A stretch of DNA of 64,000 bases from positions 4,223,501 through 4,287,500 of the forward strand of contig NZ_JAOVZQ010000001.1 of NCBI RefSeq assembly GCF_026619435.1, read 5' to 3'. This DNA comes from Hoeflea ulvae (GTDB lineage Bacteria; Pseudomonadota; Alphaproteobacteria; Rhizobiales; Rhizobiaceae). A model generated the notes under the pieces. That model saw only the letters and a list, made by a program, of their open reading frames with translations, made no database searches and was not told the origin of the DNA. The position numbers were made by a program, and so were the translations under genes. Shown in pieces: positions 37,322 through 54,210 of this stretch. Each line of letters begins with the position of its first letter. Within the stretch, counting starts at the first letter, position 1.

Positions 37322-38431
37322 ATGACCATCACCGATCTTTTCGTCAGCGGCTGCAATCATCCCACCGGCTATTTCGCCACGTCGGATTCACCGGGGATCT
37401 CGATCTTCCGGATTGATCCGGAGCATGGATCAGCCGACCTGCTGTCGCGGTTCGCAGAGATCGAGAACCCCACCTTCGTGATTGCCAGTTCGTCCGGAGA
37501 CCGGCTTTACGCAAGCTGCGAAATGCCCCTGTGGCCCGAAGGGGCGGTCACCGGTTTCGCGCTGTCGCCGGACCGCCGGACCATCACGCAGCTCAAGCGC
37601 CAGTCCTCGGCCGGCTCCATCACCGCCCATCTCAGTCTCGACCGGACCGGCCGCTTCGTTCTGGTCACCAATCATGGCTGGGACGAGGATCTCGGCGGCC
37701 GCGACCAGGCGCTGGCAATTGTCGCCGTCGATGCTGAAACCGGCGTCGGCGAGATTGCGGCCAGCGCCCGCCAGACCGGCACCGGCCCGCAATTGCCGCG
37801 CCAGGGCCGTTCGCATCCCCATGCGGCGCTGACAACGGCCGACAACCGGCATGTCATCGTCTCTGACCTGGGCGCCGACGCGCTGATGGTCTATCGCTTT
37901 GACGATCAAGACGGCATGATTGCCCTGGCGCACACCATTGCGCTCGAGCCCCGCACCGGCCCGCGCCACCTCGCATTCTCGCATGGCGGCGCCTTTGTTC
38001 ATGTCTGTGGCGAACTGGATTCCTCGGTCACCAGCCTGAAGGTGGATCTCGAGACCGGCATGCTGGAGATCATCGGCCGATGCAGCACCATCCCCGCGGA
38101 CTGTTCGCTCCTCAACCACACCTCGGAAATCGCCCTCGCCCCGTCAGGCCAGCATCTTTATGTCGCCAATCGCGGCCATGATTCGATCAGCCGGATCGCC
38201 ATCGATGCCAAGACAGGCATGCCGCGGCTGATCGAAAACGTGGCCAGCGGCGGCAAGACGCCACGGCACTTTGCCTGTTCGCCCGACGGCGAGGTCATGG
38301 CGATCGCCAATCAGGACAGCGACCGGGTCAGTTTCCTTGCCATCAGCCGGGACGACGCGCTGCAGCCGCTGGATTTCCACCTCGACATCGGCACGCCGAC
38401 CTGTGTCGGCTTCCTGCCCGCGAAATCATGA
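37322..38431 (+). CDS. Beta-propeller lactonase family protein (6-phosphogluconolactonase/carboxymuconate cyclase type)
   Basis: 369-aa seven-bladed propeller (Pfam lactonase, YbhE-like). Blade-repeat patterns such as HLSLDRTGRFVLVTNHG, HPHAALTTADNRHVIVSDLGADALMVYRF, GPRHLAFSHGGAFVHVCGE and SEIALAPSGQHLYVANRGHDSISRI recur. No signal peptide, so cytosolic. Family members hydrolyse sugar lactones; here the likely substrate is the lactone formed after oxidation of the sugar imported by the genes upstream. Spacing of 2 bp from the permease gene supports a single operon. Some family members have no known activity, so lactonase function is an inference. Confidence 0.85.
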   Translation: MTITDLFVSGCNHPTGYFATSDSPGISIFRIDPEHGSADLLSRFAEIENPTFVIASSSGDRLYASCEMPLWPEGAVTGFALSPDRRTITQLKRQSSAGSITAHLSLDRTGRFVLVTNHGWDEDLGGRDQALAIVAVDAETGVGEIAASARQTGTGPQLPRQGRSHPHAALTTADNRHVIVSDLGADALMVYRFDDQDGMIALAHTIALEPRTGPRHLAFSHGGAFVHVCGELDSSVTSLKVDLETGMLEIIGRCSTIPADCSLLNHTSEIALAPSGQHLYVANRGHDSISRIAIDAKTGMPRLIENVASGGKTPRHFACSPDGEVMAIANQDSDRVSFLAISRDDALQPLDFHLDIGTPTCVGFLPAKS

Positions 38432-38532
38432 CATGAGCAGCGTTCCCCTCCCTGTCGGCCGAGATCCGCCAATTTGCAAAGCCACCCGATTTCGGGCAAA
38501 GCGATGGCTGGGTTTGACCGGACGAGGATCGC

Positions 38533-39333
38533 ATGAACGACACACCGGAATCAGATGACGTGAAGAGCGGCAAATACACCGCACCCGCTCTGTCCAAGGG
38601 GCTCGACATTCTGGAGCTGCTGGCCTCCGATGCCGACGGCATGCGCAAGAGCGATATCGCCAAGGCGCTGGACCGCTCGATCAGCGAGATCTTCCGCATG
38701 CTGGCGGTGCTGACCGAGCGGGGTTATGTCTCCTTCGAGCCGTCGACGGAACGCTATGCCCTGACCACCAAGCTGTTCGAGATCGCCCACCGGCATCCGC
38801 CGATCCGGCGCCTGTCCTCGGTCGCCATCGAAACCATGCGCAAGCTGGCGCTTGAGGTGAACCAGTCGATCCATCTGGCGATCCAGCATGGCGACGACAT
38901 CCTGATTATCGCCCAGGTTGACGCGCCCGGAAACAATGTCACCAGCGTGCGGCTCGGCGCGCGCGTGCCGATGCTGCAGACCGCGTCGGGCGCGGTTCTG
39001 TTTGGCGCGCTGAGCCAGAGCGAGAGCAAGAAATTCCTGCAGCGCGCCAAGAATGGCGAGCCGGACATCCTCCAGTCCTTCCTCGAAAATGTCCGGACCT
39101 TCGAGGAGCGCGGCTATTGCGAAAGCCGCTCGGCGGTGATCGAGGGGGTTTTCAACATCTCGGTCCCCTTGCGGGACTATTCCGGCGCCATCATCGCCGC
39201 GCTGACCATCCCCTTCATCACCCGCCTGCGGACGCCCCATTTCGTGTCGCGCGAAGAGACCCGCGCAAGGCTGGTGGAAGCCGGCCAGGAAGTCACCGCT
39301 TTGCTGGGTGGCAATGCCTTTACCGGGGCCTGA
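38533..39333 (+). CDS. IclR-family transcriptional regulator
   Basis: 266-aa regulator with an N-terminal winged helix (LSKGLDILELLASDADGMRK, then SDIAKALDRSISEIFRMLAVL) and a C-terminal GAF-like effector domain. IclR proteins often control aromatic or sugar-acid catabolism. Located between the lactonase and the SBP-like/CoA-transferase pair, it may regulate both sides. An AT-rich element downstream (39346-39362) resembles one upstream of the transporter gene at 52240 and could be its site. The ATG at 38533 follows a purine-rich GGACGAGGA. Confidence 0.9.
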   Translation: MNDTPESDDVKSGKYTAPALSKGLDILELLASDADGMRKSDIAKALDRSISEIFRMLAVLTERGYVSFEPSTERYALTTKLFEIAHRHPPIRRLSSVAIETMRKLALEVNQSIHLAIQHGDDILIIAQVDAPGNNVTSVRLGARVPMLQTASGAVLFGALSQSESKKFLQRAKNGEPDILQSFLENVRTFEERGYCESRSAVIEGVFNISVPLRDYSGAIIAALTIPFITRLRTPHFVSREETRARLVEAGQEVTALLGGNAFTGA

Positions 39334-39345
39334 CCGACAAACAAT

Positions 39346-39368
39346 ATATAAAATCTACTTTCGCAGAT
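39346..39368. promoter_or_regulatory. AT-rich element upstream of the SBP-like/CoA-transferase pair
   Basis: ATATAAAATCTACTTTC (39346-39362), followed by GCAGAT, resembles ATATAAACGTAAGTTTC plus AGAT at 52311-52330 (12 of the first 17 positions match). It lies 44-66 bp upstream of the ATG at 39412. A shared regulator site is inferred. Confidence 0.35.
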
Positions 39369-39411
39369 GAAATATTTCGGCTAGGTTGGCTTCGGTTCTG
39401 TGGAGGTCCGA

Positions 39412-40560
39412 ATGGCTGATTTGGTAGTGTTGAAGGGGATGACCTGGTCGGACCCGCGCGGGTATGATCCGGTGGTGGCGGCAGCCCGTGAATTCGGCAA
39501 ATTGCATCCCGGCGTGTCCATCGAATGGGACAAACGCTCGCTGCAGGGCTTTGAGACCACGCCGGTCGAGGAGCTTGCCGCGCAATATGATCTGATGGTT
39601 ATCGACCATCCCCATGTCGGCTCGGTGGCGGACCGCGGCTGCCTGCTGCCGCTCGAAACCCATGCAAGCGAAAATGCCCTCGCGGAACTGGCCAACCAGT
39701 CGGTGGGGCGCAGCTTTCAGAGCTATTTCCTGCACGGGCATCAATGGGCCCTGCCGATCGATGCGGCCACCCAGGTGCAGGCGCACCGGGCCGACCTGTC
39801 GCCGCGCGTGAATAGCTGGGCCGAGGTGATCCGCAAGGCCGAGCACGGCCATGTCATCTGGCCCTTGCGCTCGCCGCATGTGCTGATGAATTTCTACACG
39901 CTCACCGCCAATATCGGCCGCCCCTGCGCCACCAGCTTCGGCGATCTAATCGACCCGGAAACCGGCCGTCACGCGCTCGAGCAACTCCGCGCCGTCTCGC
40001 GCCACATGGACGAAGCTTTTTACAAGATGGACCCGATCGCCGTGCTCGACGAGCTGTCCTCTTCGGACCGCTACCACCTGGCGCCGCTGGTCTATCTCTA
40101 CAAGGGCTACGCCAATGAGGGCTACCGCAAGCACCGGATCCATTTCACCGACATGCCGGTGCTTGGCCGCAACGGACCGCTGGGCTCGGCGCTCGGCGGC
40201 ACCGGCATGGCGATCTCGGCTAAAACCGTACACCCGGAATTGTGCACCGAATTCGCCCTCTGGGTGGCCGGTGCCGCGTGTCAGCGCGGGTTGTATGTCG
40301 AGGCCAATGGCCAGCCGGGCAATGCGCTCGCCTGGAGTGATCCCGCCGTCAACGCCGCAACGCTGGACGCCTATTTCAACACCCGGCTGACCCATGAAAC
40401 CGCCTGGCTGCGGCCGCGCCATGACGGCTACATGCAATTTCAGGAAGAAGGCTCCGAAATTGTCGCCGAAGCGCTGCGCGGCCGGATTGAGCCGGATCGG
40501 GCTGTTGCCCAGCTGAACGAACGGTTTCGCGCCAGCTTCGCCAATGGAGACCAGTCATGA
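39412..40560 (+). CDS. Solute-binding-protein-like protein without signal peptide
   Basis: 382-aa protein with the look of a family-1 extracellular solute-binding protein (start LVVLKGMTWSDPRGYDPVVAAAREF; LGGTGMAISAKT and CTEFALWVAGAACQRG late). It has no signal peptide, lipobox or hydrophobic N-terminus. An in-frame TAG at 39382 and the ribosome site TGGAGG just before ATG 39412 rule out a longer secreted form. No permease or ATPase is adjacent; instead its stop overlaps the CaiB CoA-transferase start (ATGA). It probably works in the cytosol, perhaps binding the substrate or product of the CoA-transferase. I do not know an experimentally characterised homologue. Confidence 0.8.
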   Translation: MADLVVLKGMTWSDPRGYDPVVAAAREFGKLHPGVSIEWDKRSLQGFETTPVEELAAQYDLMVIDHPHVGSVADRGCLLPLETHASENALAELANQSVGRSFQSYFLHGHQWALPIDAATQVQAHRADLSPRVNSWAEVIRKAEHGHVIWPLRSPHVLMNFYTLTANIGRPCATSFGDLIDPETGRHALEQLRAVSRHMDEAFYKMDPIAVLDELSSSDRYHLAPLVYLYKGYANEGYRKHRIHFTDMPVLGRNGPLGSALGGTGMAISAKTVHPELCTEFALWVAGAACQRGLYVEANGQPGNALAWSDPAVNAATLDAYFNTRLTHETAWLRPRHDGYMQFQEEGSEIVAEALRGRIEPDRAVAQLNERFRASFANGDQS

Positions 40561-41696
40561 CCATGTCGGATCTGCCGCTCGAAGGCGTGCGCGTCCTCGA
40601 TTTCAGCCAGTTTCTCGCCGGGCCTTACGCCTCGCTGCGGCTGGCCGATCTGGGCGCCGATGTGGTCAAGGTGGAGCGCGCCGGCAAGGGCGACCTGTCG
40701 CGTTATCTCTATGTCTCGAATGTCTCCGTCGAGGGCGAAAGCACCATTTTCCACGCCATCAACCGCGGCAAGCGCTCGCTCGAAATCAACCTCAAGGCCG
40801 ATACCGACCGGGCCCGGCTGCAGGATCTCGTCGCCGGCGCGGACATCGTCATCCAGAATTTCCGACCCGGCGTCATCGAAAGGCTGGGTTTCGGCTATGA
40901 GGCGGTCAAAGCGCTCAACCCGAAAATCATCTATGGCTCGATCAGCGGCTACGGCGCGGACACCGCCTGGAATGCCCTGCCCGGCCAGGACCTGCTCACC
41001 CAGGCCCGCTCCGGCGTGATGTGGCTCAGCGGCGGCGCCGATGACGGCCCGGTCGCCATAGGCCTGCCGGTGGCCGACATGCTCGCGGGCGCGGCACTGG
41101 CACAAGGTCTGCTGGCGCTGCTGTTTCGCCGCGAACGCACCGGCAAGGGCGGGCTGGTCGAAACCAGCCTGCTGGAAGCCATCACCGATCTGCAGTTCGA
41201 ACTGCTGACCACCCATCTCAACGACGGCGGCCGCCTGCCCGAGCGGCAACGCGAGAACCCCGCCCATGCCTATCTGGCGGCGCCCTATGGCGTCTATCGC
41301 ACCGCCGACGGCCACATTGCGCTGGGCATGAATGATCTTGGCGAGCTGTGGACCCATTTCGGCGTAGAGACGCCGCTTGCCGGGCTCGATGCATTTCGCG
41401 ACCGGGATGCCGTGTCCGCAGCCCTCGGCACGGCGCTGGCCCGACACCCGACCGGGCACTGGATGGACATTGCCATGGCGCAGGATTTCTGGGCCGCACC
41501 GGTGCTGAGCTGGGACGAGACGCTGGCCTCCGGCGTGCTGCAGCAACTCGACATGCTGCAATCGGTGGCGCTCAAGGACGGCCCGTTGCACACAACCGCC
41601 ATTCCGATGCGGATTGACGGCGCCAGGCCAAAATCGGAACTGGCGGCGCCCCGGCTGGGCACCGCCAATGCATTGCTGAAAAGCGGCTGGAGCTGA
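40557..41696 (+). CDS. CaiB/BaiF (class III) CoA-transferase, copy 1
   Basis: 379-aa class III CoA-transferase, which moves CoA between carboxylic acids via an aspartyl-CoA anhydride. The N-terminal LEGVRVLDFSQFLAGPYASLRLADLGADVVKVE signature, NFRPGVIERLG and GQDLLTQARSG are seen; the candidate nucleophile is Asp174 (PVADMLAG). It is translationally coupled to the SBP-like gene and close to sugar-acid enzymes. A divergent paralogue lies at 53059-54210. Acid and CoA donor are unknown; the context suggests a sugar-derived hydroxyacid. A hairpin follows the stop, before the convergent FAH gene. Confidence 0.92.
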   Translation: MTMSDLPLEGVRVLDFSQFLAGPYASLRLADLGADVVKVERAGKGDLSRYLYVSNVSVEGESTIFHAINRGKRSLEINLKADTDRARLQDLVAGADIVIQNFRPGVIERLGFGYEAVKALNPKIIYGSISGYGADTAWNALPGQDLLTQARSGVMWLSGGADDGPVAIGLPVADMLAGAALAQGLLALLFRRERTGKGGLVETSLLEAITDLQFELLTTHLNDGGRLPERQRENPAHAYLAAPYGVYRTADGHIALGMNDLGELWTHFGVETPLAGLDAFRDRDAVSAALGTALARHPTGHWMDIAMAQDFWAAPVLSWDETLASGVLQQLDMLQSVALKDGPLHTTAIPMRIDGARPKSELAAPRLGTANALLKSGWS

Positions 41697-41703
41697 AGAT
41701 GCC

Positions 41704-41724: not shown

Positions 41725-41748
41725 GCGTCCCCAAAACCCCGAATCCGG

Positions 41749-42588
41749 TCAGATGTCTGCGACCACGTCCTGACGCTGCGCGCCAAGACCTTCGATGCCA
41801 AGTTCGACAACATCGCCGGCCTTGAGAAACTGCGGCGGCTTCATGCCGAGGCCGACGCCGGGAGGCGTCCCGGTGGAGATGATGTCGCCCGGATGCAGGG
41901 TGAAGAACTGGCTCAGATAGCTGATCAGATGGGCGACGCCATAGACCATGGTTTTGGACGAGCCGTCCTGCATGCGCTTGCCGTTGACATCCAGCCACAT
42001 GCCGAGGGCTTGCGGATCGGCGACCTCGTCCGGGGTGACCAGCCAGGGGCCGGTCTGGCCGAAATTGTCGCAGGACTTGCCCTTGGTCCACTGCCCGGCG
42101 CGTTCAGCCTGAAAGGCCCGCTCGGAGACGTCGTTGATGACGCAATAGCCGGCAACATGGTTGAGCGCATCGGCTTCCGAGACATATTTCGCCGGCTTGC
42201 CGATGACCACGCCGAGTTCGACCTCCCAGTCGGTCTTTTCCGAGCCGCGCGGCACGATGATCGGATCATTTGGACCGCAAATGGCGCTGTTGGCCTTCAT
42301 GAAGATGATCGGCTCCGGCGGCACCTGCGCACCGGTTTCGGCAGCGTGGTCGGAATAGTTCAGGCCGATGCAGACGAACTTGCTGGTTCCGGCAACGCAA
42401 GGGCCCAGGCGCGGAGAGCCCGAGACCAGCGGCAGGCTTTCGATATCGACCGACTTGAGCGCATCAAGATCGGTCAGGACCGCGCCCGACAGGTCCGAAA
42501 CCTTGCCGGAAAGATCCCGGATATTGCCGTTTGTGTCCAGAACACCGGGCTTTTCCTGACCCGCTTCACCAAAACGCACGAATTTCAT
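41749..42588 (-). CDS. Fumarylacetoacetate hydrolase family protein, probable 2,4-diketo-3-deoxy sugar acid hydrolase
   Basis: 279-aa FAH-fold metal-dependent enzyme. Metal ligands are Glu122 and Glu124 (DWEVELGVVIG) and Asp153 (INDVSERAFQ); GTPPGVG lies near the end. In non-phosphorylative L-fucose and L-rhamnose pathways a close relative cleaves 2,4-diketo-3-deoxy-L-fuconate/rhamnonate to pyruvate and lactate. The nearby 2-keto-3-deoxyfuconate-dehydrogenase-like SDR and mutarotase support that reading; ureidoglycolate lyase and other FAH activities remain possible. ATG 42588 follows GGAG; the longer frame to 42705 is unlikely. It is probably transcribed from its own promoter, since a terminator follows the SDR gene upstream. 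Confidence 0.88.
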   Translation of the reverse strand: MKFVRFGEAGQEKPGVLDTNGNIRDLSGKVSDLSGAVLTDLDALKSVDIESLPLVSGSPRLGPCVAGTSKFVCIGLNYSDHAAETGAQVPPEPIIFMKANSAICGPNDPIIVPRGSEKTDWEVELGVVIGKPAKYVSEADALNHVAGYCVINDVSERAFQAERAGQWTKGKSCDNFGQTGPWLVTPDEVADPQALGMWLDVNGKRMQDGSSKTMVYGVAHLISYLSQFFTLHPGDIISTGTPPGVGLGMKPPQFLKAGDVVELGIEGLGAQRQDVVADI

Positions 42589-42747
42589 ACCATTCTCCTG
42601 TTTAAACACGGACCCTGCTGACGCTTCTGACAGCAGCTCCTCCATGATGACGTTGCCCGCGTTTGCAAGCATGGTCCGAACGCCGGCCCTGCGAGCAAAA
42701 TACACATTCTGTGACTTATTGCAGGTCCGGAAATCAACCTTGACCTG

Positions 42748-43506: not shown

Positions 43507-43529
43507 TTCAGTCTCCAAGAAAAACGGAT

Positions 43530-44729: not shown

Positions 44730-45037
44730 GATGCTTCCCTTTCCACGCCGTCATTGTCGCGCAGCGAATAGGTCGGCGTGTAGTCGCTGCGGATATTGTG
44801 GACATGCACATGCCGACCGGCCGCGATGTCGGCGGTGGCGCGGCCGATCGGCATGCCGTATTTGACGATGACATCGCCGGAGGCAATCGCTCTGGCGGCC
44901 ACCTTGTGGGCGCGCGCAATGGTCTCGGCCAGCACCAGGTCGTGGCCGTCCACAGAGATCGAGGTGCCCGCTTCCACCGTCTTCAGGGCCACTAGCACAT
45001 TGTCGTCTGCATGCAGGCGCAAAAACGCATTCATCAT
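44726..45037 (-). CDS. UxaA-family dehydratase, small subunit (SAF domain)
   Basis: 103-aa SAF-domain protein equivalent to the N-terminal part of altronate dehydratase. It contains [15 protein letters not shown] and the metal-site region [11 protein letters not shown] near 42-52, with HVHVHNI close to the C-terminus. It overlaps the large-subunit gene and the MaoC gene by 3-4 bp. Either of two consecutive ATGs (45037, 45034) could start it; the first is used. Probably forms a two-subunit dehydratase with the next gene. Confidence 0.87.
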
Positions 45038-45486
45038 CCGGCGTCCTTCATCTCGACCAGCAGGATATGATCGGTCGCCAGAACCGTCTCGCCCTTCTGG
45101 TTGATGATCTCGCAGCGTTCGATCACCTGTCCCTGCCCGGGCCGTTTCGGATCCGGCTTTTTCTCCGAGATCGTCACCCGGGTGTGGATCGTGTCGCCGA
45201 TGAACACCGGCCGGATGAAGCGCAGCCGGTCATAGCCATAGGAGAAGGCCACCGGATTGATAACGCTGGCGGTGAGCCCGATGCCGATGGAAAACACCAT
45301 CGTGCCATGTGCAATGCGCTGGCCGAACGGCAGCGTCTTGCAGAATTCGGCATCTAGATGATGCGGAAAGAAATCACCGGTATGGCCGGCATGGACCACG
45401 AAATCGGTTTCGGTCATGGTCCGCCCCACGGTCTCGCGGGTGGCGCCAAGCTGGTAGTCTTCGTAATAGGTCTTTTCGGTATGCAT
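45034..45486 (-). CDS. MaoC-like (hotdog) dehydratase, copy 1
   Basis: 150-aa single hotdog domain of the MaoC/R-specific enoyl-CoA hydratase type. The hydratase-2 motif is intact: GDFFPHHLD with Asp38 and His43 (D-x4-H). The segment [23 protein letters not shown] is nearly identical to one in the second MaoC protein at 52475-52978. The family reversibly dehydrates hydroxyacyl-CoA esters (for example mesaconyl-CoA hydratase). Its presence among sugar-acid genes with CoA-transferases suggests a CoA-thioester step. It overlaps the small dehydratase subunit and follows the oxidoreductase by 3 bp, so it is cotranscribed. Confidence 0.88.
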
Positions 45487-45489: not shown

Positions 45490-46569
45490 CTAGTCCTTGC
45501 TGGCCAGCGGCGTGGCGGGGGATGCGCTGCTGCGGTAGGCGGCCTCGACCAGCGCCATGGTGTCCCGGGCATCCTCGACACTCGAGATCAGGCTCTCCTC
45601 CTCGCCGGTGGCAAAGCGCTGCATCTGCGCCATCCGGTGGGTGAAGGCGTCCGGGAACCAGGCGCCCTCAAGCGGGATCTGCTGCCAGTCTCCGCCGGTG
45701 TTGAGCCACAGCTCATCGGGCTCGCCGCGCGGATAGTCGAGATTGACGCCGAGCTTGACATAGGCGGCGCCCTCGAGCCCGCAGATGCGGAACTCGCAGG
45801 CCTGGAACTTGCGCCCGAAGGAATGGTTGTGGTTGATCGACAGCGCACAACGTACCCGGTCGCCATAATCGAGGATCGCCGATGTCCGGGTCTGGGCGAT
45901 CGTCGATGAGGGATGGCCGATGCTCTTGGCGTGCACGCCCTCGGGATTGCCCAGAATGCTGCGGACGAAATCGAGATAATGGATCGAATGCAGCGAGAGC
46001 TCCACCCGTGGAGCCTTTTCCAGAAATGTCCACAAATGCCAGGGCGTGTCGAGCGCCAGCCAGGCGTCGAAATCCACCACTTCACCAAGCAGGCCCTGGT
46101 CGATGGCATCGCGCAAAGCCAGCATCATCGGCGAAAACCGCAGCTGGAAATTTACCGCGGCGCGGAGCTTGCGGGCGCGGCAGATGTGAAGGATCTCGCT
46201 GGCGCCGGCCAGATCACTGCCCATCGGCTTTTGCAACAGCACCGGCGCGCCTTCGGGCAACAGCCGCAGGATGCCGGCATGGGCGTCGGGCGGTGTCGCC
46301 AGATCAAACACCACGCCATCCTGGGAGGCAGCGGCTTCGGGCGTGTCATAGGCGGTGATGCCCCAGACCTCGGCCAGCGCCCGCGCCTTGGCGAGGTCGG
46401 GATCATAGATGCCGCGCACCGGGAAACCGCCATTGCGGTAGGCCGGCAAATGCGCGTCGGTGACAATCGAACCGGCGCCGAAGATGACGACCGGCATCGG
46501 CTGCGCCAGGCGCGGCCAGCTCTGCCTGAGTTCGGGTATTGATGGTTTCTCAGTCAAGGTGAAACACAT
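45490..46569 (-). CDS. Gfo/Idh/MocA-family oxidoreductase
   Basis: 359-aa NAD(P)-dependent sugar/inositol dehydrogenase-type protein. A Rossmann motif (VVIFGAGSIVTDAHLPAY, residues 27-44), LLQKPMG in place of the usual EKP motif, and a His-rich catalytic segment SLHSIHYLDF are seen. Family members oxidise or epimerise sugars. In this cluster it could oxidise the imported aldose or its mutarotated form to a lactone. The Gln-for-Glu change in EKP is noteworthy but not disqualifying. The start overlaps the mutarotase gene by 20 bp; GGAGG abuts the ATG, so a downstream TTG at 46557 or ATG near residue 25 are alternatives. Confidence 0.82.
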   Translation of the reverse strand: MCFTLTEKPSIPELRQSWPRLAQPMPVVIFGAGSIVTDAHLPAYRNGGFPVRGIYDPDLAKARALAEVWGITAYDTPEAAASQDGVVFDLATPPDAHAGILRLLPEGAPVLLQKPMGSDLAGASEILHICRARKLRAAVNFQLRFSPMMLALRDAIDQGLLGEVVDFDAWLALDTPWHLWTFLEKAPRVELSLHSIHYLDFVRSILGNPEGVHAKSIGHPSSTIAQTRTSAILDYGDRVRCALSINHNHSFGRKFQACEFRICGLEGAAYVKLGVNLDYPRGEPDELWLNTGGDWQQIPLEGAWFPDAFTHRMAQMQRFATGEEESLISSVEDARDTMALVEAAYRSSASPATPLASKD

Positions 46570-46879
46570 CCTCCATCATCGCCCACCACTCGCCGTCGGC
46601 GCGGCTTTCGAGCGGCGCCTGAAGCGGCATGCAGACATCCCACCAGCGCTGGGTTTCCGGGTCAGCCGCCATTTTCGCGGCATCGGCGGCGAAATCCTCG
46701 CCGTGATATTCCCAATAGCCGAACAGCAGGTTTTCCGGCTCACGCAGAAAGATCGTGTAGTTGCGGATATTGCATTCGCTGATCCTGGCCAGCACGCCCG
46801 GCCAGACATCGGCGTGGAGTGCCTTGTACTCGGCAATCGTCTCAGGCTTCAGTCCGATCACCATTCCCATGCGCTGCAT
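46550..46879 (-). CDS. L-rhamnose/L-fucose mutarotase family protein
   Basis: 109-aa small ferredoxin-like-fold protein (RhaM/YiiL, formerly DUF718). It shows MGMVIGLKPETIAEYKALHADVWPGVL with the conserved Tyr and His, NYTIFLREPENLLFGYWEYHG, and WWDVCMPLQAPL. These enzymes interconvert alpha and beta anomers of L-rhamnose or L-fucose. Its presence with 2-keto-3-deoxyfuconate-like enzymes is the main sequence hint that the cluster's substrate is a 6-deoxyhexose or a stereochemically similar sugar. It lies 9 bp after the enolase-superfamily gene. Confidence 0.88.
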   Translation of the reverse strand: MQRMGMVIGLKPETIAEYKALHADVWPGVLARISECNIRNYTIFLREPENLLFGYWEYHGEDFAADAAKMAADPETQRWWDVCMPLQAPLESRADGEWWAMMEDVFHLD

Positions 46880-46888: not shown

Positions 46889-48001
46889 CTAGGCCCTGAT
46901 GTCGACAGACAGGCCGTCAATCTTCGAAGCGGCAATTGCGTCCCAGTCCCAGGCAATGCCGAGGCCCGGCTCGGAGGACGGAATGGCCCGGCCATCCTCC
47001 ATCTCCATCCCCTGCGTGGTCAGTGTATCAAGCTGCGGAATGTATTCCAGCCAGGGCGCATTGGGGATGGCGCAGACCAGGCTGACATGCAGTTCCATCA
47101 GGAAATGCGGACAGACCGGCACATTCTGCGCTTCGGCCATGTGGGCAACCTTGAGCCAGGGCGTGATGCCGCCGATGCGGGCGACGTCGACCTGCACGAT
47201 CGACGCGCCGCCGAGTGTCAGGTAATCCTTGAACTGGCTGATTGAATACATGCTCTCGCCGACTGCGATCGGAACACTTGTGGATGCGGCCAGCCGCACA
47301 TGCTCCATCACGTCATCAGCCGGCATCGGTTCCTCGAACCAGGCAATGTCATGCCGCTCGAGCATGCGGGCGCGCCGCATTGCCTCGGCCCGGGTAAAGC
47401 CCTGATTGGCGTCGGTCATGATCTCGTAGCCGGGGCCGACGGCCTCGCGCACGGCGCGCAACCGGGCGTCATCCTCGCTCAGATGCGGACGGCCGATCTT
47501 GATTTTCGAGCCGGAAAATCCCTTGGCCTGCGCTTCCAGCGCATCATCGACCAGCGCCTGGGTTTCGATATGCAGCCAGCCGCCCTCGGTGGTGTACATC
47601 GGTACGCTGTCCTTGGCGCCGCCGGCCATCTTGTAAAGCGGCAGCCGCGCCCGGCGGCAACGCAGATCCCACAGCGCGGTATCGACTGCGGCCAGCGCCA
47701 GCGAGGTGATCGCGCCAACCGCCGTGGCATGGGTGGAAAACAGCAATGTGCGCCAGATGCGCTCGATGTTGTCGGCATCCATCCCCAGCAATTGCGGCAC
47801 CAGCGTATCGCGCAGCAGAGACATGATCGCCGGCCCGCCCTGCCCGATCGTGTAGCTGTAGCCGGTCCCGGTGGCGCCGTCGGAATCGGTGATGCGCAGG
47901 ATCGGCGTTTCCTGGCTGACAAAGGACTGGATCGCGTCGGTGCGGCGGACCTTGGGCTTGAGGTCGACCATGGAGATTTCAATGCGCTCGATAATGGCCA
48001 T
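46889..48001 (-). CDS. Enolase-superfamily sugar-acid dehydratase (mandelate racemase group)
   Basis: 370-aa mandelate racemase/muconate-lactonising-enzyme family protein. The whole mandelate-racemase-type active site can be read: Lys166 and Lys168 (KIKIG), metal ligands Asp197 (DANQG), Glu223 (FEEP), Glu249 (GES), the Asp272-His299 dyad, and Glu319. The two-Lys/His-Asp pattern is shared by sugar-acid dehydratases such as fuconate, rhamnonate and talarate/galactarate dehydratases, so abstraction of an alpha proton from an aldonate or aldarate is expected. True racemases and cycloisomerases share it too. It starts 2 bp after the ABC ATPase gene. Confidence 0.9.
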   Translation of the reverse strand: MAIIERIEISMVDLKPKVRRTDAIQSFVSQETPILRITDSDGATGTGYSYTIGQGGPAIMSLLRDTLVPQLLGMDADNIERIWRTLLFSTHATAVGAITSLALAAVDTALWDLRCRRARLPLYKMAGGAKDSVPMYTTEGGWLHIETQALVDDALEAQAKGFSGSKIKIGRPHLSEDDARLRAVREAVGPGYEIMTDANQGFTRAEAMRRARMLERHDIAWFEEPMPADDVMEHVRLAASTSVPIAVGESMYSISQFKDYLTLGGASIVQVDVARIGGITPWLKVAHMAEAQNVPVCPHFLMELHVSLVCAIPNAPWLEYIPQLDTLTTQGMEMEDGRAIPSSEPGLGIAWDWDAIAASKIDGLSVDIRA

Positions 48002-48003: not shown

Positions 48004-49095
48004 CTACCTCAGCGATTGTCCGGTTTCGGAATCAAACAGATGGCACTTGCTCAGATCGAGCTGGAACCGCAGCGTCTCGTCAATCGCGACGGGCCGCGGA
48101 TTGAGCATCTTGGCCTGCACCTGCTCCCCGGAGATTTCGCCGAACAGCAGCGTCTCGGCGCCCAGCGGTTCGGTCAGCGAAACGCACATCTCTATCTCGG
48201 CGCTTTCGCTGCCCTGCGGCAAGGCATGGCCCATCGGCATCAGATTGTCGGCCCTGAACCCCAGAATGACCTTGCGCCCGGCCTCGACGCCCCTGAAAGC
48301 CGAGGGCACCGGCAACCGCACATCCGAGGCCATCTCCAGCGTCTCGCCATCAGCGGCAATGGTCGCCGGGATCAGGTTCATCGGCGGCGAGCCGATAAAG
48401 GTGGCGACAAAGGTGTTGACCGGGTTCTCGAACACTTCGAGCGGCGTGCCCTGCTGCTCGATATGGCCGTCACGCATGATGACGATGCGGTCCGCAAGCG
48501 TCATCGCCTCGACCTGGTCATGGGTGACATAGATGATGGTGGTCTTGATCTTCTGGTGCAGCTTCTTGATTTCCACCCGCATCTGGGCGCGCAGCTTGGC
48601 ATCGAGATTGGACAGCGGCTCGTCAAACAGGAACACGTCGGGATGCCGGACAATGGCGCGGCCCATCGCGACCCGCTGGCGCTGCCCGCCCGAGAGTTCG
48701 GCAGGCCGGCGGTCGAGATAGTCACTGAGGCTCAGGATGGTGGCTGCCTCGTGAACCGCCGCATCAATCTCGTCTTGTGATTTCTTGGCGATTTTCAGTG
48801 TGAAGCCGAGATTTTCGCGCACCGTCATATGCGGATAGAGCGCGTAGTTCTGAAACACCATCGAGATATTGCGCGACCGCGGCGGCAGGTCATTGACCAG
48901 CGCGTCACCGATATAGACCTCGCCACCGGATATTTTCTCCAGGCCCGCAATCATCCGCAAGGTGGTGGACTTGCCGCAACCGGAGGGGCCAACGAGAACG
49001 ACGAATTCGCCATGCGCAATATCGAGATCGATGCCGTGAACGACGCGCAGCGATCCATATTTCTTTTCTACTTCTTTGAGCTGAACCTGAGCCAT
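48004..49095 (-). CDS. Sugar ABC transporter ATPase (UgpC/MalK type)
   Basis: 363-aa ATPase with an N-terminal nucleotide-binding domain (Walker [10 protein letters not shown] at 36-44, LSGGQRQR, Walker [12 protein letters not shown], switch His in YVTHDQ) and a C-terminal OB-fold (MalK/TOBE) regulatory domain from about residue 240. It energises the adjacent permease for a sugar or sugar acid. It lies 2 bp after the permease gene and 2 bp before the enolase-superfamily gene. ATPases of this class are sometimes shared among transporters. Confidence 0.94.
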
Positions 49096-49097
49096 GA

Positions 49098-50864
49098 CTA
49101 TCCCTTGACGCCTCCGAATGTGAGGCCTGCAATGAGGTGCTTCTGGATGATGAAGGTGAGGATCAAGGCGGGGATGATCATCACCACCGCCAATGCCGAC
49201 ATGCCGCCCCAGTTCAGCGTGAACTCCGAGGTGAAGTCGAGCAGCCCGACCGGCATGGTCTTGGAGTTCACCGAGCGGGTGAGCTGGCTGGCCAGCGCAT
49301 ATTCATTCCAGGAGGTGAGGAAGGCGAAAATGCCGGCCGAGGCGACGCCTGCCTTGGCGACAGGAAACTCGACTTTCCAGAACGCCTGCCAGCGTGTGCA
49401 GCCATCGATCTCGGCGGCTTCGGCCAGTTCGCGCGGCACCTGTCGGAAGAACCCGTCGATGAGCCAGATCGTGAACGGCACATTCATGGCGACATAGGCC
49501 AGGATCAGCCCGAAATGAGTGTCGATGATGCCGAGCCGGGCGAAGACGATGAAGAGCGGCAGCGACAGCGCGATGCCGGGAACGGCGCGGGTCAGCATCA
49601 TGCCGACAAAGATCGCCGCCTTGCCGCGAAACTGGTAGCGCGCAAAGGCATAGCCGCCGGCCATGCCGACAAAGATGGCAATAACGGTCGAGGTGATCGA
49701 GATGATCAGCGAATTGGTGAAATAGCGGACCACCGGAATACCGCCCTCGCCAAGTGCTCCGAACATGGCGCGGTAATGATCGAGATTGAGCTCGTTGGGA
49801 ATCCAGACCGGCGGCTTGGCCATGATCTCGACCGTCGGGCGGAACGAATTGAGCACCACCCAGAGCCCCGGCAGGCAGATGATCGACATCGCCACGAACA
49901 GGGTAACGAAATGCAGGATGGCAAGAGCCCGACGGTTCAGCCGATGTTTGGCGTTGAGTTCCATCTGATCAGCCCCCATTCCGACAATTTGACGCGACGC
50001 ACTGAGCTTGCGGAAGAAGAAGATGGTGAAGAAGATCGCCAGCACGATGGAGATATAGCCCATGGCATTGGCCAGCCCCATCTTGGCGTCGACATAGCCG
50101 GTGCGCGCCAGCATGGTCCAGATCAGTTCGGTGCGGTGCGCCGGACCGCCATTGGTCATGATCTTGACGATGTCATAGGCCCGCGCCACATCCAGGCTGC
50201 GGATGGCCAGCGCAATATTGATGAACGGCATGATGAAGGGCAGCGTGATGTGGCGAAAGGTCTGCCACGAAGTGCATCCATCCACCTGGGCCGCCTCCAG
50301 CGGATCCCGCGGCACGGCGAAAAGCCCGGCCAGGATGAGGATCGCGAAGACCGAGGTCGACATCCACACCTCGGCAAAGATGATGGCGAACATCGCCAGC
50401 TTGCCATCGACCAGCCAGGGGATGGCGGCTTCGGTCAGGCCCAGAGATTGCAGGGCATTGTTCATCAGGCCGATATTGTCATTGAAGATGAACTTGAACT
50501 GGAAGCCGACCAGGATCGGCGAAAACATCATCGGAAACATCATGATGGTTCGCAGGCCGCGCTGGCCCCACGTCACCTTGTTGACCAGCAGCGCCAGTCC
50601 GAGACCCAGCAGCATTTCCAGATTGAGCGCCACGGTGAGCAGGAAAACGGTCCGGCCGAAGGCCCACCAGAACCCGGCATCGCCGAACAGCCGCACATAG
50701 TTGCGCAGGCCGATCCAGGAGAAGATGCTCTCCGGCCGGGTCAGGCGGTAGGCGGTGAAGCTCGAATAGAATGAGAAAAGCAGTGGCACCAGCACCACCG
50801 CCGCCAGGATGATCAGCGCCGGCAACAGGAGGCTAAGCCAGGGCGGCAAATTGAACCGTCGCAT
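49098..50864 (-). CDS. Sugar ABC transporter permease, MalF-like and MalG-like domains in one frame
   Basis: 588-aa frame containing two complete binding-protein-dependent permease domains: a MalF-like part (about 1-295, EAA loop [11 protein letters not shown] at 190-200) and a MalG-like part (about 301-588, EAA loop [11 protein letters not shown] from 482). Each has six or so hydrophobic segments. Normally these are separate genes. The join passes a G5 run (C5 at 49973-49977). One extra G would end the first protein at TGA 49971-49969 (298 aa) and leave ATG 49964, 4 bp later, as a normal start for a 288-aa second permease ([12 protein letters not shown]). So either a real fusion or a one-base deletion. 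Function as the membrane channel of this sugar transporter is secure either way. Confidence 0.88.
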
Positions 50865-50883
50865 TTGATATCCCGCATTGCAT

Positions 50884-50922
50884 GAGAAAAGGGCGGAGCC
50901 GGCCGCTTGGGTCGGCTCCGCC
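50884..50922 (-). terminator. Hairpin with U-rich tail between binding-protein and permease genes
   Basis: Perfect 10-bp stem (arms 50913-50922 and 50892-50901; CGGCTCCGCC on the plus strand pairs with GGCGGAGCCG). On the minus strand it is followed by CTTTTCTC. It lies 16 bp after the binding-protein stop, so a partial terminator lowering permease expression is likely. Confidence 0.65.
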
Positions 50923-50938
50923 AGCCTTGGGAGGCCGG

Positions 50939-52240
50939 TCAGTAGACGCCGTTGTCCCGCATCATTTCGTCAACGGCTTCCGATGCCGAGGCCAGTGCTT
51001 CGTCGACGGTCTTGTCGCCGAGAATGGCTGCCTGCAGTTCCGGGAAGATCAGGTTGCCTGCCTCGATCCAGTAGGGCGTCGGCGGCACCGGGAAAGCCGT
51101 CTTGGCGGTTTCCTGGAAGGCCTGCAGAACTTCGTTCTTGTAGGCATCATCCTTGGCCTGCTCGATCACATAGTCCCAGACCGCGGTGCGTGTCGGCAGC
51201 GGGCCGGCACTTGATTCGAGCTTCTGGCTTTCCTCGCTGGTCAGGAAATCGACCAGTGAAGCGGCCGCTTCCTTGTGGGCGCAATCCTCCGTGACCGAGA
51301 AGCCGTGGAAGCCGGACCATCCGGTGCGCACGCCGGCCGAACCCTTGGGCGCGGGCGCTACGCCGACATTGCCGGCCACCTTGGAGGCCGAAGGATCATT
51401 GAAAAAGCCCGACCAGCCCGGCCAGTCGAGATTGAGCGCGATGGTGCCGGAGGCAAAGCCGTTGCCGAGATCATCCCACAGATAGTTGGTCGTGCCGGGC
51501 GGAACCGCGCCGGCCTTGTAGAGATCGACGAACCACTGCAATGCTTCCTTGCCGGCATCCGAATTGAACGCGGGCGAGAAATCGTCATTGAGCATCTTGC
51601 CGCCATTGGCGACGATCAGCTCATAGAAGCGGCCGTTGATGGCCTCGTCCTTGCCCGCATATTGCGTGCCGTAGAAATTCGGCGGATCGGCGAAGAATTC
51701 GGCCTGCTCGCGGAACTGGTCCCAGGTCTCGGGCGGAGCCAGATCATAGCCATATTCGGTCTTGAAGGCTGCGGCCTTGTCAGCGTCCTCATAGAGGCTC
51801 TTCTGATAATACAGCGCCGAGACGTCGAACTGCGCCCTCGGCAGCATCACCAGCTTGCCGTCCAGTGTCGCGGCACTGATATTGGCCTGGACGAATTCGG
51901 CAACCGTGTCCGCCGGGATCAGAGCCGACAGATCGGTGTAGAGCGCCGGATATTGCGAGGCGAAGGACGAGTGGTTCGAGCCCACGCACCAGCCGGTGGT
52001 TCCGGCGGCGATGTCGGACTTGAACTCCTTGTCGAGCTCGAAATGGTTCTTCTTCGAGATGATCGTGACCGTGGCGCCGGTGTCTTTCTCCCATTCGGCA
52101 ATACGGCCATACAGCTTTTCATACTGCTCGCCGCCAATCAGCTTGGCCTCGAGCGTCACTCCGTCAAACTCACCTGCGCCGGCGGATGCGGTACTCAGCA
52201 ACAGCGCGGCAAGGATCAATTGCAAATTCGAACGTTTCAT
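50939..52240 (-). CDS. Sugar ABC transporter substrate-binding protein (family 1)
   Basis: 433-aa extracellular solute-binding protein of the maltose/UgpB class, signal peptide about 1-22 (LLLSTASAGAGEF). Features include a typical central segment (WDQFREQAEFFADPPNFYGTQYAGKDEAINGRFYELIVANGG) and a C-terminal HKEAAASLVDFLTSEESQKL motif. It captures an unidentified sugar, sugar acid or polyol for the adjacent permease and ATPase. ATG 52240 follows GGGAGGAACC; a longer frame to 52339 is rejected. It heads the minus-strand operon that ends with the SDR at 42769. Confidence 0.92.
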   Translation of the reverse strand: MKRSNLQLILAALLLSTASAGAGEFDGVTLEAKLIGGEQYEKLYGRIAEWEKDTGATVTIISKKNHFELDKEFKSDIAAGTTGWCVGSNHSSFASQYPALYTDLSALIPADTVAEFVQANISAATLDGKLVMLPRAQFDVSALYYQKSLYEDADKAAAFKTEYGYDLAPPETWDQFREQAEFFADPPNFYGTQYAGKDEAINGRFYELIVANGGKMLNDDFSPAFNSDAGKEALQWFVDLYKAGAVPPGTTNYLWDDLGNGFASGTIALNLDWPGWSGFFNDPSASKVAGNVGVAPAPKGSAGVRTGWSGFHGFSVTEDCAHKEAAASLVDFLTSEESQKLESSAGPLPTRTAVWDYVIEQAKDDAYKNEVLQAFQETAKTAFPVPPTPYWIEAGNLIFPELQAAILGDKTVDEALASASEAVDEMMRDNGVY

Positions 52241-52310
52241 CGGTTCCTCCCAATTTCCATCCTCTGCGGCGCGGTTTGGCCAGGGCCTCCAGCCCATCAG
52301 GGATTTTTGT

Positions 52311-52333
52311 ATATAAACGTAAGTTTCAGATAT
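52311..52333. promoter_or_regulatory. AT-rich dyad upstream of the binding-protein gene
   Basis: ATATAAACGTAAGTTTC followed by AGATAT has AAAC/GTTT and ATAT/ATAT arms, about 70-95 bp upstream of the ATG at 52240. It resembles elements at 39346 and 53016. The remainder of the 52241-52474 spacer shows no gene. Confidence 0.4.
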
Positions 52334-52474
52334 GTTCAAGGCGAAAAATTCCGAAGGGTGGAAAACCCGCTTCCCGGCCCCTGAGAGCAGGCCGGCAAAG
52401 ACAATGCGGAATCGCTGCCTTCACCGCCTTGCAAAAGCAGACAAACCCTGCCGGGTATGGGCTCGGCGCCGGTG

Positions 52475-52978
52475 TCAGGCGGTATCGGCGGGGCGACCGT
52501 TGCGGTATTTCACCGTCTGCAGATGCTCGCAGTAGAGCACCAGTTCATCCTCGCCCTTGAACACCTCGTAGCTGACCCGCACATTGCCCAGTTCATCGGT
52601 GCGCGGCGTCTTTTCCAGATTGGTGCGGACCGTGTGAATGGTGTCGCCGATGAACACCGGCGCGATGAAGCGCAGCCGGTCATAGCCATAGCTGAAGGCA
52701 TGGATATTGTTGTTGGCCATCAGCCCGAGACCATAGGAAAACACCATGGCCCCGGCCACCAGGCGGCGCTTGAACAGCCCGTCTTCGACCGCGAAAATCT
52801 CGTCGGCGACATAGGGATGGTTGTCCATCACCAGGCAGTTGAAGCTCATCGCCTCGCCTTCGGAAATGGTCCGACGGATCGAGCGGACCTTCTGGCCGAC
52901 CTCGAACTCCTCATACATCCAGGTCTCGACATTGTACAAAGGGATGTCGCGTTTGTCGGTGTAGTAGCCGTCTGCCAT
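52475..52978 (-). CDS. MaoC-like (hotdog) protein, copy 2, catalytic His replaced
   Basis: 167-aa hotdog protein paralogous to the MaoC at 45034-45486; both share the block [10 protein letters not shown](R/A)[10 protein letters not shown]. In the hydratase motif Asp52 is kept, but the position of the catalytic His is Val57 ([10 protein letters not shown] against [11 protein letters not shown] in copy 1), so ordinary enoyl-CoA hydration is doubtful. It may be a thioesterase-like, regulatory or altered-chemistry hotdog, or partner another subunit. It is divergent from the CoA-transferase gene across an 80-bp spacer carrying a palindrome. The start at 52978 follows GAGGAG. Confidence 0.85.
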
Positions 52979-53015
52979 GGTTCCGAATCTCCTCTGGGCG
53001 CTTGACGTTTTTCTT

Positions 53016-53037
53016 ATACAAAACTAGTTTTTGCATA
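53016..53037. promoter_or_regulatory. Palindrome AAAACTAGTTTT between divergent maoC and caiB genes
   Basis: A perfect 12-bp palindrome (53020-53031) with partly symmetric flanks (ATAC before, GCATA after) lies midway between the two divergent starts. Its AAAC-TA-GTTT core resembles the element at 52311. Candidate operator controlling both genes. Confidence 0.45.
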
Positions 53038-53058
53038 CAAACAATAGGGGCTGCGCCG

Positions 53059-54210
53059 ATGACTGACACGAACACACCTGTGATCCTGCCACTGGAGGGG
53101 CTGCGGGTTCTCGATTTCGCGCAGTTCCTGGCAGGCCCGATGGCCGCCCTGCGGCTGGCGGATCTGGGCGCCGAGGTCATCAAGGTCGAGCGTCCGCAAG
53201 GTGGAGAACTGTGCCGCAAGCTGGTTGTGGCCGACCAGATGTTCGAGGGCGACAGCCTCTTGTTCCACACCATCAACCGCAACAAGCGCAGCATGGCCGC
53301 CGACCTCAAGAGTGCCGATGATCTTGAAAAAGTGCGCAAACTGATCGCCTCGGCCGATGTGATGATCCACAATTTCCGTCCCGGCGTGATGGAGCGCATC
53401 GGGCTCGACCACAAAAGCGTGAAGGCCATCAATCCGCGCCTCGTCTACGGCACGGTCACGGGATATGGCGACAAGGGTCCGTGGCGCGACAAGCCCGGGC
53501 AGGATCTTCTGGTCCAGTCGCTCTCCGGACTGACCTGGCTATCGGGCAATCGCGATGACGGGCCCGTCCCGGTGTCCTTTGCGGTGCTCGACATGGCAAC
53601 CGGCAATCATCTGGTTCAGGGCATTCTCGCCGCTCTCGTCCGCCGCGGCGTCACCGGCAAGGGCGGGCTGGTCGAGGTCGATCTGATGAGTTCTGCCATC
53701 GACGCGCAGTTCGAGCAGCTCACATCCTTCTTCAATGGCGACAGGACGCAGCCGCCGCGCAGCGCCATTGCCAATGCCAGCGTCCATGCAGCTGCGCCCT
53801 ACGGCATTTACCAGACCTCAGATGGCCATATCGCCATTGCCATGACACCGATCGCCGCGCTGGCCGACCTGCTGCAGTGCGAGGCCTTGGCGCCCTATCG
53901 CGACCCGGATCTGGCATTCGTCAGGCGCGACGAGATCAAGGCGATCCTTGCCGATTTCCTGAAGACCGGGACGACCGCCACCTGGCTGTCCCGGCTTGAG
54001 CCGGCCGATGTCTGGTGCGCGGAAGTGCTCGACTGGCCGAAATTCTGCCGGACCGAGGGCTTTGCCGCGCTCGATCCCTTGCAGGAAGTCGTTGCCGGCA
54101 ATGGCGCGACCATGACCACCACGCGTTGCCCGATCCGGATCGACGGCCAGACGCTGACTTCGCCGCGTGGCGCGCCCAGGCTCGGAGAATATGGCGGCGA
54201 TCAGACCTGA
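53059..54210 (+). CDS. CaiB/BaiF (class III) CoA-transferase, copy 2
   Basis: 383-aa class III CoA-transferase and paralogue of the enzyme at 40557-41696. Shared blocks are LEGLRVLDFAQFLAGP, LRLADLGAEVIKVE, NFRPGVMERIG and GQDLLVQSLSG; the candidate nucleophile is Asp178 (AVLDMATG). Divergent from the MaoC copy 2 gene, it forms a second CoA-transferase/hotdog module. It probably activates a hydroxy or dicarboxylic acid as a CoA ester; donor and acceptor are unknown. ATG 53059 follows AGGGG by 8 nt; the in-frame upstream extension crosses the promoter palindrome and is rejected. It converges on dppF 21 bp downstream. Confidence 0.92.
   Translation: MTDTNTPVILPLEGLRVLDFAQFLAGPMAALRLADLGAEVIKVERPQGGELCRKLVVADQMFEGDSLLFHTINRNKRSMAADLKSADDLEKVRKLIASADVMIHNFRPGVMERIGLDHKSVKAINPRLVYGTVTGYGDKGPWRDKPGQDLLVQSLSGLTWLSGNRDDGPVPVSFAVLDMATGNHLVQGILAALVRRGVTGKGGLVEVDLMSSAIDAQFEQLTSFFNGDRTQPPRSAIANASVHAAAPYGIYQTSDGHIAIAMTPIAALADLLQCEALAPYRDPDLAFVRRDEIKAILADFLKTGTTATWLSRLEPADVWCAEVLDWPKFCRTEGFAALDPLQEVVAGNGATMTTTRCPIRIDGQTLTSPRGAPRLGEYGGDQT

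What the first reader, a model, noticed from the sequence alone, without database searches (positions are those of the whole stretch)
37322..54210. Two CoA-transferase/hotdog modules built into a deoxysugar/sugar-acid catabolic island
Seen: two paralogous CaiB-type CoA-transferases (40557-41696, 53059-54210) and two paralogous MaoC-like proteins (45034-45486, 52475-52978) with a nearly identical SYGYDRLRFI-PVFIGDTIHT block. They lie within one run of lactonase, FAH hydrolase, 2-keto-3-deoxyfuconate-dehydrogenase-like SDR, UxaA-like and enolase-superfamily dehydratases, mutarotase and a sugar ABC transporter. Known: non-phosphorylative L-fucose/L-rhamnose routes use mutarotase, dehydrogenase, lactonase, dehydratase, KDF dehydrogenase and FAH hydrolase without any CoA ester; CaiB plus MaoC enzymes act on acids such as mesaconate. 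Inference: a branch may activate a sugar-derived acid as a CoA thioester and dehydrate it, a route I cannot match to a described pathway.
Basis: partly seen in the sequence, partly recalled or inferred. Interest (0 to 1): 0.78.

Follow-up and report, generated by a model that had tools for sequence, protein, structure and literature searches.

The report
CoA-thioester module inside a sugar-acid island
A bacterial gene island for oxidising sugars carries a conserved set of coenzyme-A enzymes plus a sugar-binding protein that seems to stay inside the cell, which suggests a way of breaking down sugar acids that we could not find described.

Summary
Two CaiB CoA-transferases (47% identical) and two MaoC hotdogs (39%) sit in a sugar-oxidation island. 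The first MaoC lies in a tight operon with mutarotase, Gfo dehydrogenase, split UxaA, SDR and FAH hydrolase.

In 80 genomes of the family (45 with MaoC1, 35 without), SBP8 is in 45 and 2, a close CaiB in 44 and 0, MaoC2 in 28 and 0. CaiB adjoins SBP8 in 48 of 57 regions. One SBP8-CaiB fusion protein was found. Nine paralogous regions have a crotonase beside SBP8 instead of MaoC. MaoC1 keeps the Asp/His dyad in 116 of 116 sequences; MaoC2 has Val for His in 39 of 39.

Best reading: CoA-transferase, hydratase and cytosolic binding protein dehydrate a sugar acid as its CoA thioester, like carnitine CaiB/CaiD. Linkage is shown; substrate and chemistry are inferred. Against it, an ordinary enolase dehydratase lies in 74 of 81 of the MaoC1 loci.

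The parts
37322..38431 (+). seven-bladed propeller lactonase
   Evidence: PF10282, 277 bits
38533..39333 (+). IclR-type regulator
   Evidence: PF01614 67 bits, PF09339 47.4 bits
39400..40560 (+). SBP8: MalE-type solute-binding protein without signal peptide; probable start at the ATG at 39412
   Evidence: translation; weak PF13416 27.9 bits, cut-off 27; AlphaFold2 pLDDT 94.2; Foldseek sugar-binding proteins; homologs start at the same motif
40557..41696 (+). CaiB1, class III CoA-transferase; overlaps SBP8 by 4 bp
   Evidence: PF02515 322.6 bits; Asp174 kept
41749..42705 (-). FAH-family hydrolase, nearest to L-2,4-diketo-3-deoxyrhamnonate hydrolase
   Evidence: NF053535 426.9 bits, cut-off 500; PDB 8gsr 355.7 bits
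42769..43518 (-). SDR dehydrogenase
   Evidence: PF13561 214.7 bits
43530..44729 (-). UxaA/GarD-like dehydratase, large part
   Evidence: PF20629 266.5 bits, PF04295 98.3 bits
44726..45037 (-). small partner of the UxaA-like enzyme (SAF-like; name recalled)
   Evidence: open frame overlapping both neighbours by 4 bp; no family scan
45034..45486 (-). MaoC1, hotdog hydratase with the Asp/His dyad (GDFFPHH)
   Evidence: PF01575 81.5 bits; PDB 4ffu E 7e-78; dyad in 116 of 116
45490..46569 (-). Gfo/Idh/MocA dehydrogenase
   Evidence: PF01408 48.3 bits
46550..46879 (-). mutarotase-like protein (RhaM type; name recalled)
   Evidence: open frame; conserved in relatives; no family scan
46889..48001 (-). 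enolase-superfamily sugar-acid dehydratase
   Evidence: PF13378 223.4 bits; NF047820 300.1 bits, cut-off 500
48004..52339 (-). sugar ABC transporter: ATPase, fused permeases, binding protein SBP1 with an export-like hydrophobic segment
52475..52978 (-). MaoC2, hotdog in which Val replaces the catalytic His
   Evidence: PF01575 43.1 bits; 39 of 39
53059..54210 (+). CaiB2, class III CoA-transferase (frame open from 53002)
   Evidence: PF02515 330.4 bits; Asp kept

Best explanation
CaiB, SBP8 and MaoC form one CoA-recycling dehydration module for a sugar acid. SBP8 holds the sugar acid in the cytoplasm. CaiB moves CoA onto its carboxylate. MaoC1, with MaoC2 as a non-catalytic partner where present, removes water from the 3-hydroxyacyl-CoA. 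For a 2,3-dihydroxy acid this gives the enol of a 2-keto-3-deoxy-acyl-CoA. CaiB then passes the CoA to the next molecule, as in carnitine dehydration by CaiB/CaiD (recalled), so no net CoA is spent. The product enters the ordinary 2-keto-3-deoxy route (SDR plus FAH hydrolase here). MaoC and crotonase (recalled as R- and S-specific) would serve opposite C3 configurations. Shown by computation: linkage, co-occurrence, kept catalytic residues, no signal peptide, one fusion, the crotonase variant. Inferred: substrate, reaction, CoA recycling, SBP8's role and the MaoC1-MaoC2 pairing.
For: Co-occurrence in 80 genomes, 45 with and 35 without MaoC1: SBP8 45 and 2, close CaiB 44 and 0, MaoC2 28 and 0. 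SBP8 on MaoC1's contig within 15 kb in 40 of 45, MaoC2 within 17 kb in 27 of 28. CaiB adjoins SBP8 on the same strand in 48 of 57 regions, and in 9 of the 10 loci printed from the phylum search. Gfo-CaiB-SBP8-MaoC1 as one run in L112 and L113. One SBP8-CaiB fusion, P0239. Crotonase beside SBP8 in nine paralogous regions. CaiB Asp in 92 of 92 rows; MaoC1 Asp/His in 116 of 116. In 9 of 10 SBP8-FAH2 loci no IlvD, enolase or UxaA dehydratase was seen nearby.
Against: An enolase dehydratase gene is in 74 of 81 MaoC1 loci, so the module is no simple substitute there. 28 of 40 FAH2 loci without SBP8 also show no recognised dehydratase, so the gap argument is weak. L256 (CaiB-MaoC-FAH2) and L262 (CaiB-crotonase-FAH2) have no SBP8 hit, and G151 has MaoC1 and CaiB but only a remote SBP8 on another contig. 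17 of 45 genomes have no MaoC2. None of 11 crotonases has both Glu motifs I looked for. In the window the CaiB genes are on the other strand from the MaoC operon. No substrate is known.
Confidence: 0.45

Rival explanations
1. The module acts on the sugar-derived acid but not as its dehydratase. Dehydration and rehydration of the CoA thioester inverts a carbon (an epimerase bypass), or it handles a side product, and the enolase or UxaA enzyme does the main dehydration.
For: Enolase is in 74 of 81 MaoC1 loci; the window holds enolase and UxaA as well.
Against: In L174-L182 FAH2 and the crotonase are present without IlvD or UxaA, and without enolase in all but L182, which leaves no other dehydratase seen there.
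Confidence: 0.25
2. The module is for an unrelated acid, such as mesaconate or another dicarboxylic acid, and merely shares the locus.
For: The best NCBIfam scores of CaiB1 and CaiB2 are mesaconate and glutarate CoA-transferases (191.5 and 204.6 bits), and both MaoCs resemble halves of beta-methylmalyl-CoA dehydratase 8hgn.
Against: Those scores lie far below the cut-offs of 700 and 750. A CitE-like lyase (PF03328) lies within 20 kb of SBP8 or MaoC1 in 1 of 32 genomes (my reading of the list). MaoC1 lies between sugar genes in the window operon.
Confidence: 0.17
3. MaoC1 and SBP8 do not work on CoA thioesters. MaoC1 is a hotdog enzyme or binding protein for a free sugar or lactone, and SBP8 is a sensor or buffer for the sugar.
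For: SBP8 has a sugar-binding fold; free-living MaoC-like proteins of unknown ligand exist (recalled); 4ffu has no assigned function in its title.
Against: Co-occurrence and adjacency with a CaiB, one fusion to CaiB, the kept Asp/His dyad, and crotonase in the MaoC place.
Confidence: 0.13

Closest known systems
Carnitine dehydration by CaiB and CaiD (recalled)
   Same: A class III CoA-transferase beside a hydratase; crotonase in one variant; activation, dehydration and CoA recycling is the proposed logic.
   Different: Sugar operon, MaoC instead of crotonase in the main variant, an added MalE-type protein; CaiB1 and CaiB2 score 80.3 and 74.5 bits against the L-carnitine CoA-transferase cut-off of 413.
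Mesaconate CoA-transferase with mesaconyl-CoA hydratase / beta-methylmalyl-CoA dehydratase (roles recalled)
   Same: CaiB plus MaoC; MaoC1 and MaoC2 align best to the N and C halves of the double hotdogs 8hgn and 4e3e.
   Different: Far below the cut-off (191.5 of 700); separate subunits; lyase nearby in 1 of 32 genomes; sugar genes around it.
Non-phosphorylative Route III of L-fucose, L-rhamnose and D-arabinose (PMC6336799, passages)
   Same: UxaA-superfamily or enolase dehydratase, SDR 4-dehydrogenase and FAH hydrolase are all in the window.
   Different: The passages read hold no CoA step: 'CoA' and 'MaoC' do not occur in that paper's main text.
Sugar-binding proteins of ABC transporters (SmoF, LpqY, MalE3)
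   Same: Fold, TM-scores 0.80 to 0.85 to the model.
   Different: No signal peptide, and the neighbour is a CoA-transferase; the transporter beside it has its own binding protein.
HadAB/HadBC-type hotdog heterodimers (recalled)
   Same: One hotdog with the dyad and one without.
   Different: Pairing here is inferred; 17 of 45 MaoC1 genomes have no MaoC2.

Membership tests
Class III (CaiB/Frc) CoA-transferases | Pfam family match | tested here: met
   322.6 and 330.4 bits, cut-off 23.3
Class III (CaiB/Frc) CoA-transferases | catalytic Asp (identified from recall of Frc) | tested here: met
   92 of 92 rows
Class III (CaiB/Frc) CoA-transferases | CoA transfer activity | not testable with these tools
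   needs an enzyme assay
MaoC/hotdog hydratases | Asp/His dyad | tested here: met
   MaoC1 116 of 116
MaoC/hotdog hydratases | Asp/His dyad in MaoC2 | tested here: not met
   Val in place of His in 39 of 39
L-carnitine CoA-transferase (NF002914) | curated score cut-off | tested here: not met
   80.3 and 74.5 of 413 bits
Succinyl-CoA:mesaconate CoA-transferase (NF041294) | curated score cut-off | tested here: not met
   191.5 and 174.7 of 700 bits
Mesaconate-type CoA route | CitE-like lyase nearby | tested here: not met
   1 of 32 genomes within 20 kb
Non-phosphorylative Route III | acid-sugar dehydratase, SDR dehydrogenase and FAH hydrolase together | tested here: met
   the FAH protein scores 426.9 of 500
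Non-phosphorylative Route III | substrate (fucose, rhamnose, arabinose) | not tested
   S. meliloti fucose link recalled only
ABC-transporter solute-binding proteins | fold | tested here: met
ABC-transporter solute-binding proteins | signal peptide | tested here: not met
   115 of 120 listed homologs have the first-strand motif within 20 residues of the start, 3 more start inside it, 2 are fragments
CoA-dependent acid-sugar dehydratase (proposed) | thioester formation and dehydration of a sugar acid | not testable with these tools
   needs an enzyme assay

The most novel reading that the evidence does not exclude
Some bacteria dehydrate sugar acids as CoA thioesters with a three-part enzyme: a class III CoA-transferase, a dedicated cytoplasmic MalE-type binding protein that recognises the sugar acid, and a hydratase chosen by C3 configuration (MaoC for one hand, crotonase for the other). 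It would be a further way to dehydrate acid sugars beside the enolase, IlvD and UxaA enzymes, and a transport-protein fold would have become an enzyme subunit.
Probability: 0.3. Interest if true: 0.88.

Novelty: new variant of a known kind. Interest (0 to 1): 0.72.

Why it matters
Oxidative sugar routes are taken to need no CoA ester before pyruvate or 2-oxoglutarate (general knowledge). A conserved CoA module inside them points to unknown sugar-acid chemistry in Alphaproteobacteria, rhizobia included. A sugar-binding protein kept in the cytoplasm as the regular partner of a CoA-transferase is unexpected. It also gives a testable job to a large protein family (2141 hits) whose named members in the list are called solute-binding, substrate-binding or hypothetical proteins.

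Tried and rejected
1. Testing whether SBP8-CaiB-hydratase replaces other dehydratases beside FAH2: inconclusive, since 28 of 40 FAH2 loci without SBP8 also show no IlvD, enolase or UxaA.

2. Reading the 120 listed long hits of the chimera search (194 in all) as SBP8-CaiB fusions: wrong for 119. They match CaiB but not SBP8; of the nine I printed, eight start like a CaiB, so they look like double CaiB proteins. Only P0239 is an SBP8-CaiB fusion.

3. Mesaconate-type pathway: weakened by the missing lyase and by scores.

4. The start positions printed were chosen by me near the motif, so they are no evidence on signal peptides; I used the database proteins instead. In a crude hydrophobicity scan the highest homolog value (2.17) is close to that of the exported SBP1 (2.22), but it lies in the first helix, after the motif.

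5. Literature (listings only unless said): locus tags of the S. meliloti cluster as I recall them, no paper. MaoC with L-fucose, CoA-transferase and dehydratase, none. Six aldonyl-CoA names, none. CaiB/MaoC with sugar-acid words: one sponge Chloroflexi paper with CaiB, and 13 papers of which none holds CaiB or MaoC. One search lists one paper with both MaoC and fucose, on seaweed-degrading bioplastic producers, not opened. Searches gave nothing on this module in their listings. The library holds open-licence papers only, and supplements could not be read.

6. The fucose link of the S. meliloti cluster (L038) is recalled from mutant-fitness work and was not confirmed. PMC11378808 (passages read) treats a different fucose transporter.
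Full report
What is there. The window lies in a 5.1 Mb genome in two contigs. Its SBP8 is 94% identical to a Hoeflea sp. IMCC20628 protein, so it probably comes from a Hoeflea relative. On the minus strand a run reads: mutarotase 46550-46879, Gfo dehydrogenase 45490-46569, MaoC1 45034-45486, small SAF-like protein 44726-45037, UxaA-like 43530-44729, SDR 42769-43518 and FAH hydrolase 41749-42705. Neighbours overlap or are 3 to 63 bp apart. Before it on the same strand come a sugar ABC transporter and an enolase-superfamily dehydratase. On the plus strand come an ABC transporter with permeases of ribose type, a propeller lactonase, an IclR regulator, SBP8 39400-40560 and CaiB1 40557-41696. MaoC2 52475-52978 and CaiB2 53059-54210 stand divergently.

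The known half. UxaA-superfamily dehydratase, 4-dehydrogenase and FAH-type hydrolase make up described routes for L-fucose, L-rhamnose and D-arabinose (PMC6336799, passages read). The FAH protein is nearest to L-2,4-diketo-3-deoxyrhamnonate hydrolase (355.7 bits to PDB 8gsr; 426.9 bits against a cut-off of 500). The enolase protein matches 3,6-anhydro-L-galactonate cycloisomerase (254.8 bits) and L-talarate/galactarate dehydratase (237.6) about equally, so its substrate is open.

The unknown half is conserved. A scan of named genomes with MaoC1 gave 540 relatives. The best 80 are, by their titles, Rhizobiales, Rhodobacterales and unnamed alphaproteobacterial or bacterial genomes. In most of the 80, MaoC1 follows Gfo and mutarotase downstream of SBP1, UgpC and enolase hits. 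In 247 genomes of the same family, 60 have a full-length MaoC1 of 60% identity or more and 2 a partial one (my count). I gave 45 of the 60 and 35 genomes without MaoC1 to three searches. SBP8 is in 45 of 45 and 2 of 35; the two are 37-40% paralogs, and G151 has only a 38% one. CaiB at E 1e-85 is in 44 of 45 and 0 of 35. MaoC2 is in 28 of 45 and 0 of 35. On MaoC1's contig lie 40 of 45 SBP8 genes, within 15 kb, and 27 of 28 MaoC2 genes, within 17 kb. The two sets were picked by hand and not balanced for relatedness. Two genomes of the window's own genus lack all four parts while a third has all.

The module. I fetched 57 of the 58 SBP8 places with 8 kb flanks or to the contig end; one at a contig end was left out. 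CaiB adjoins SBP8 on the same strand in 48 of 57 and lies in the region in 54 of 57. MaoC1, MaoC2 or crotonase lies within 5 kb in 43 of 57. Recurrent orders are MaoC2-CaiB-SBP8 and Gfo-CaiB-SBP8-MaoC1. In 398 genomes across the phylum, 18 have SBP8 (11 of 213 genera), three of them outside the class. Of the 22 loci of that search I printed ten; nine have CaiB next to SBP8.

The crotonase variant. In nine regions (L174-L182) the SBP8 is a 36-40% paralog followed by a crotonase. Gfo-like, DUF4432-like and SDR hits stand before it in seven of nine, CaiB in seven and FAH2 after it in eight. FAH2 of L174 matches the FAH protein 9kkt (379.6 bits) and 2-keto-3-deoxy-D-arabinonate dehydratase 2q18 (69.2 bits). 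The ALDH of L174 scores best on alpha-ketoglutaric semialdehyde dehydrogenase (539 bits, cut-off 770). Such a route needs an acid-sugar dehydratase, and 9 of 10 SBP8-FAH2 loci show no IlvD, enolase or UxaA nearby. L212, outside the class, repeats this with a 37% MaoC and a lactonase-like gene. L138 holds MaoC1, crotonase, CaiB, SBP8 and FAH2 together. The argument is weak, because 28 of 40 FAH2 loci without SBP8 also lack a recognised dehydratase. Two of those 40, L256 and L262, have CaiB with MaoC or crotonase and FAH2 but no SBP8.

The parts. CaiB keeps the catalytic Asp in 92 of 92 alignment rows. MaoC1 keeps Asp and His in 116 of 116 distinct sequences; MaoC2 keeps Asp but has Val for His in 39 of 39. 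MaoC1's best stretch on the double hotdogs 8hgn and 4e3e is the N half, while MaoC2 scores better on their C half (27.6 against 10.2 bits, 27.1 against 20.2). This suggests, but does not show, a heterodimer. None of 11 crotonases has both Glu motifs I searched for; the three printed have the first.

SBP8. Of 120 listed homologs, 115 carry the first-strand motif G-TW---RG within the first 20 residues, 3 more start inside it and 2 are fragments. This leaves no room for a signal peptide. AlphaFold2 gives pLDDT 94.2 and pTM 0.91. The best structural matches are sugar-binding proteins (SmoF TM 0.80, LpqY 0.85). The transporter beside it has its own binding protein with a hydrophobic export-like segment. 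A search with CaiB and SBP8 joined found one fusion among 120 listed hits, P0239, with SBP8 at 4-353 and CaiB at 384-751.

Mechanism. In carnitine dehydration (recalled) a CoA-transferase and a crotonase remove water from a 3-hydroxyacyl-CoA and recycle the CoA. The same logic on a 2,3-dihydroxy acid would give a 2-keto-3-deoxy acid, the entry to the known half. MaoC and crotonase are recalled as R- and S-specific, so the swap would match opposite C3 configurations. Against a simple dehydratase role, an enolase dehydratase is in 74 of 81 MaoC1 loci, so the module probably serves another stereoisomer or another step there.

Limits. No substrate, expression or activity was tested. Gene finding in fetched loci was by open frames and similarity to the window's genes, so names there are provisional. 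Literature was searched in an open-licence library only.

Noticed in passing
49098-50864: The two sugar-transporter permeases are one 588-residue protein here with two permease-domain stretches, while several relatives such as L001, L003 and L054 carry them as two genes.
   Followed up: partly
43530-45037: The UxaA-like dehydratase is split into a small and a large protein; the read passages of PMC6336799 name sulfolactate sulfo-lyase as the heteromeric member of this superfamily.
   Followed up: no
P0123-P0242: 119 of 120 listed long hits match CaiB but not SBP8, and eight of nine printed ones start like a CaiB: apparent double CaiB proteins, named from Hymenobacter, Planctomycetota and Pelagicoccus among others.
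   Followed up: partly
L114, L116, L117, L216 (after the mutarotase): A 216-residue RraA-like protein ends these clusters, where others have SDR and FAH; it may be an aldolase for the 2-keto-3-deoxy acid (function recalled).
   Followed up: no
L038:10001-10450: MaoC1 of S. meliloti 4H41 is identical in 143 of 146 residues to PDB 4ffu, titled only 'oxidase', so a solved structure of this family exists without a function.
   Followed up: partly
54232-57774: Oligopeptide-type ABC ATPases and a gamma-glutamyltransferase frame follow the island; they look unrelated to it.
   Followed up: no
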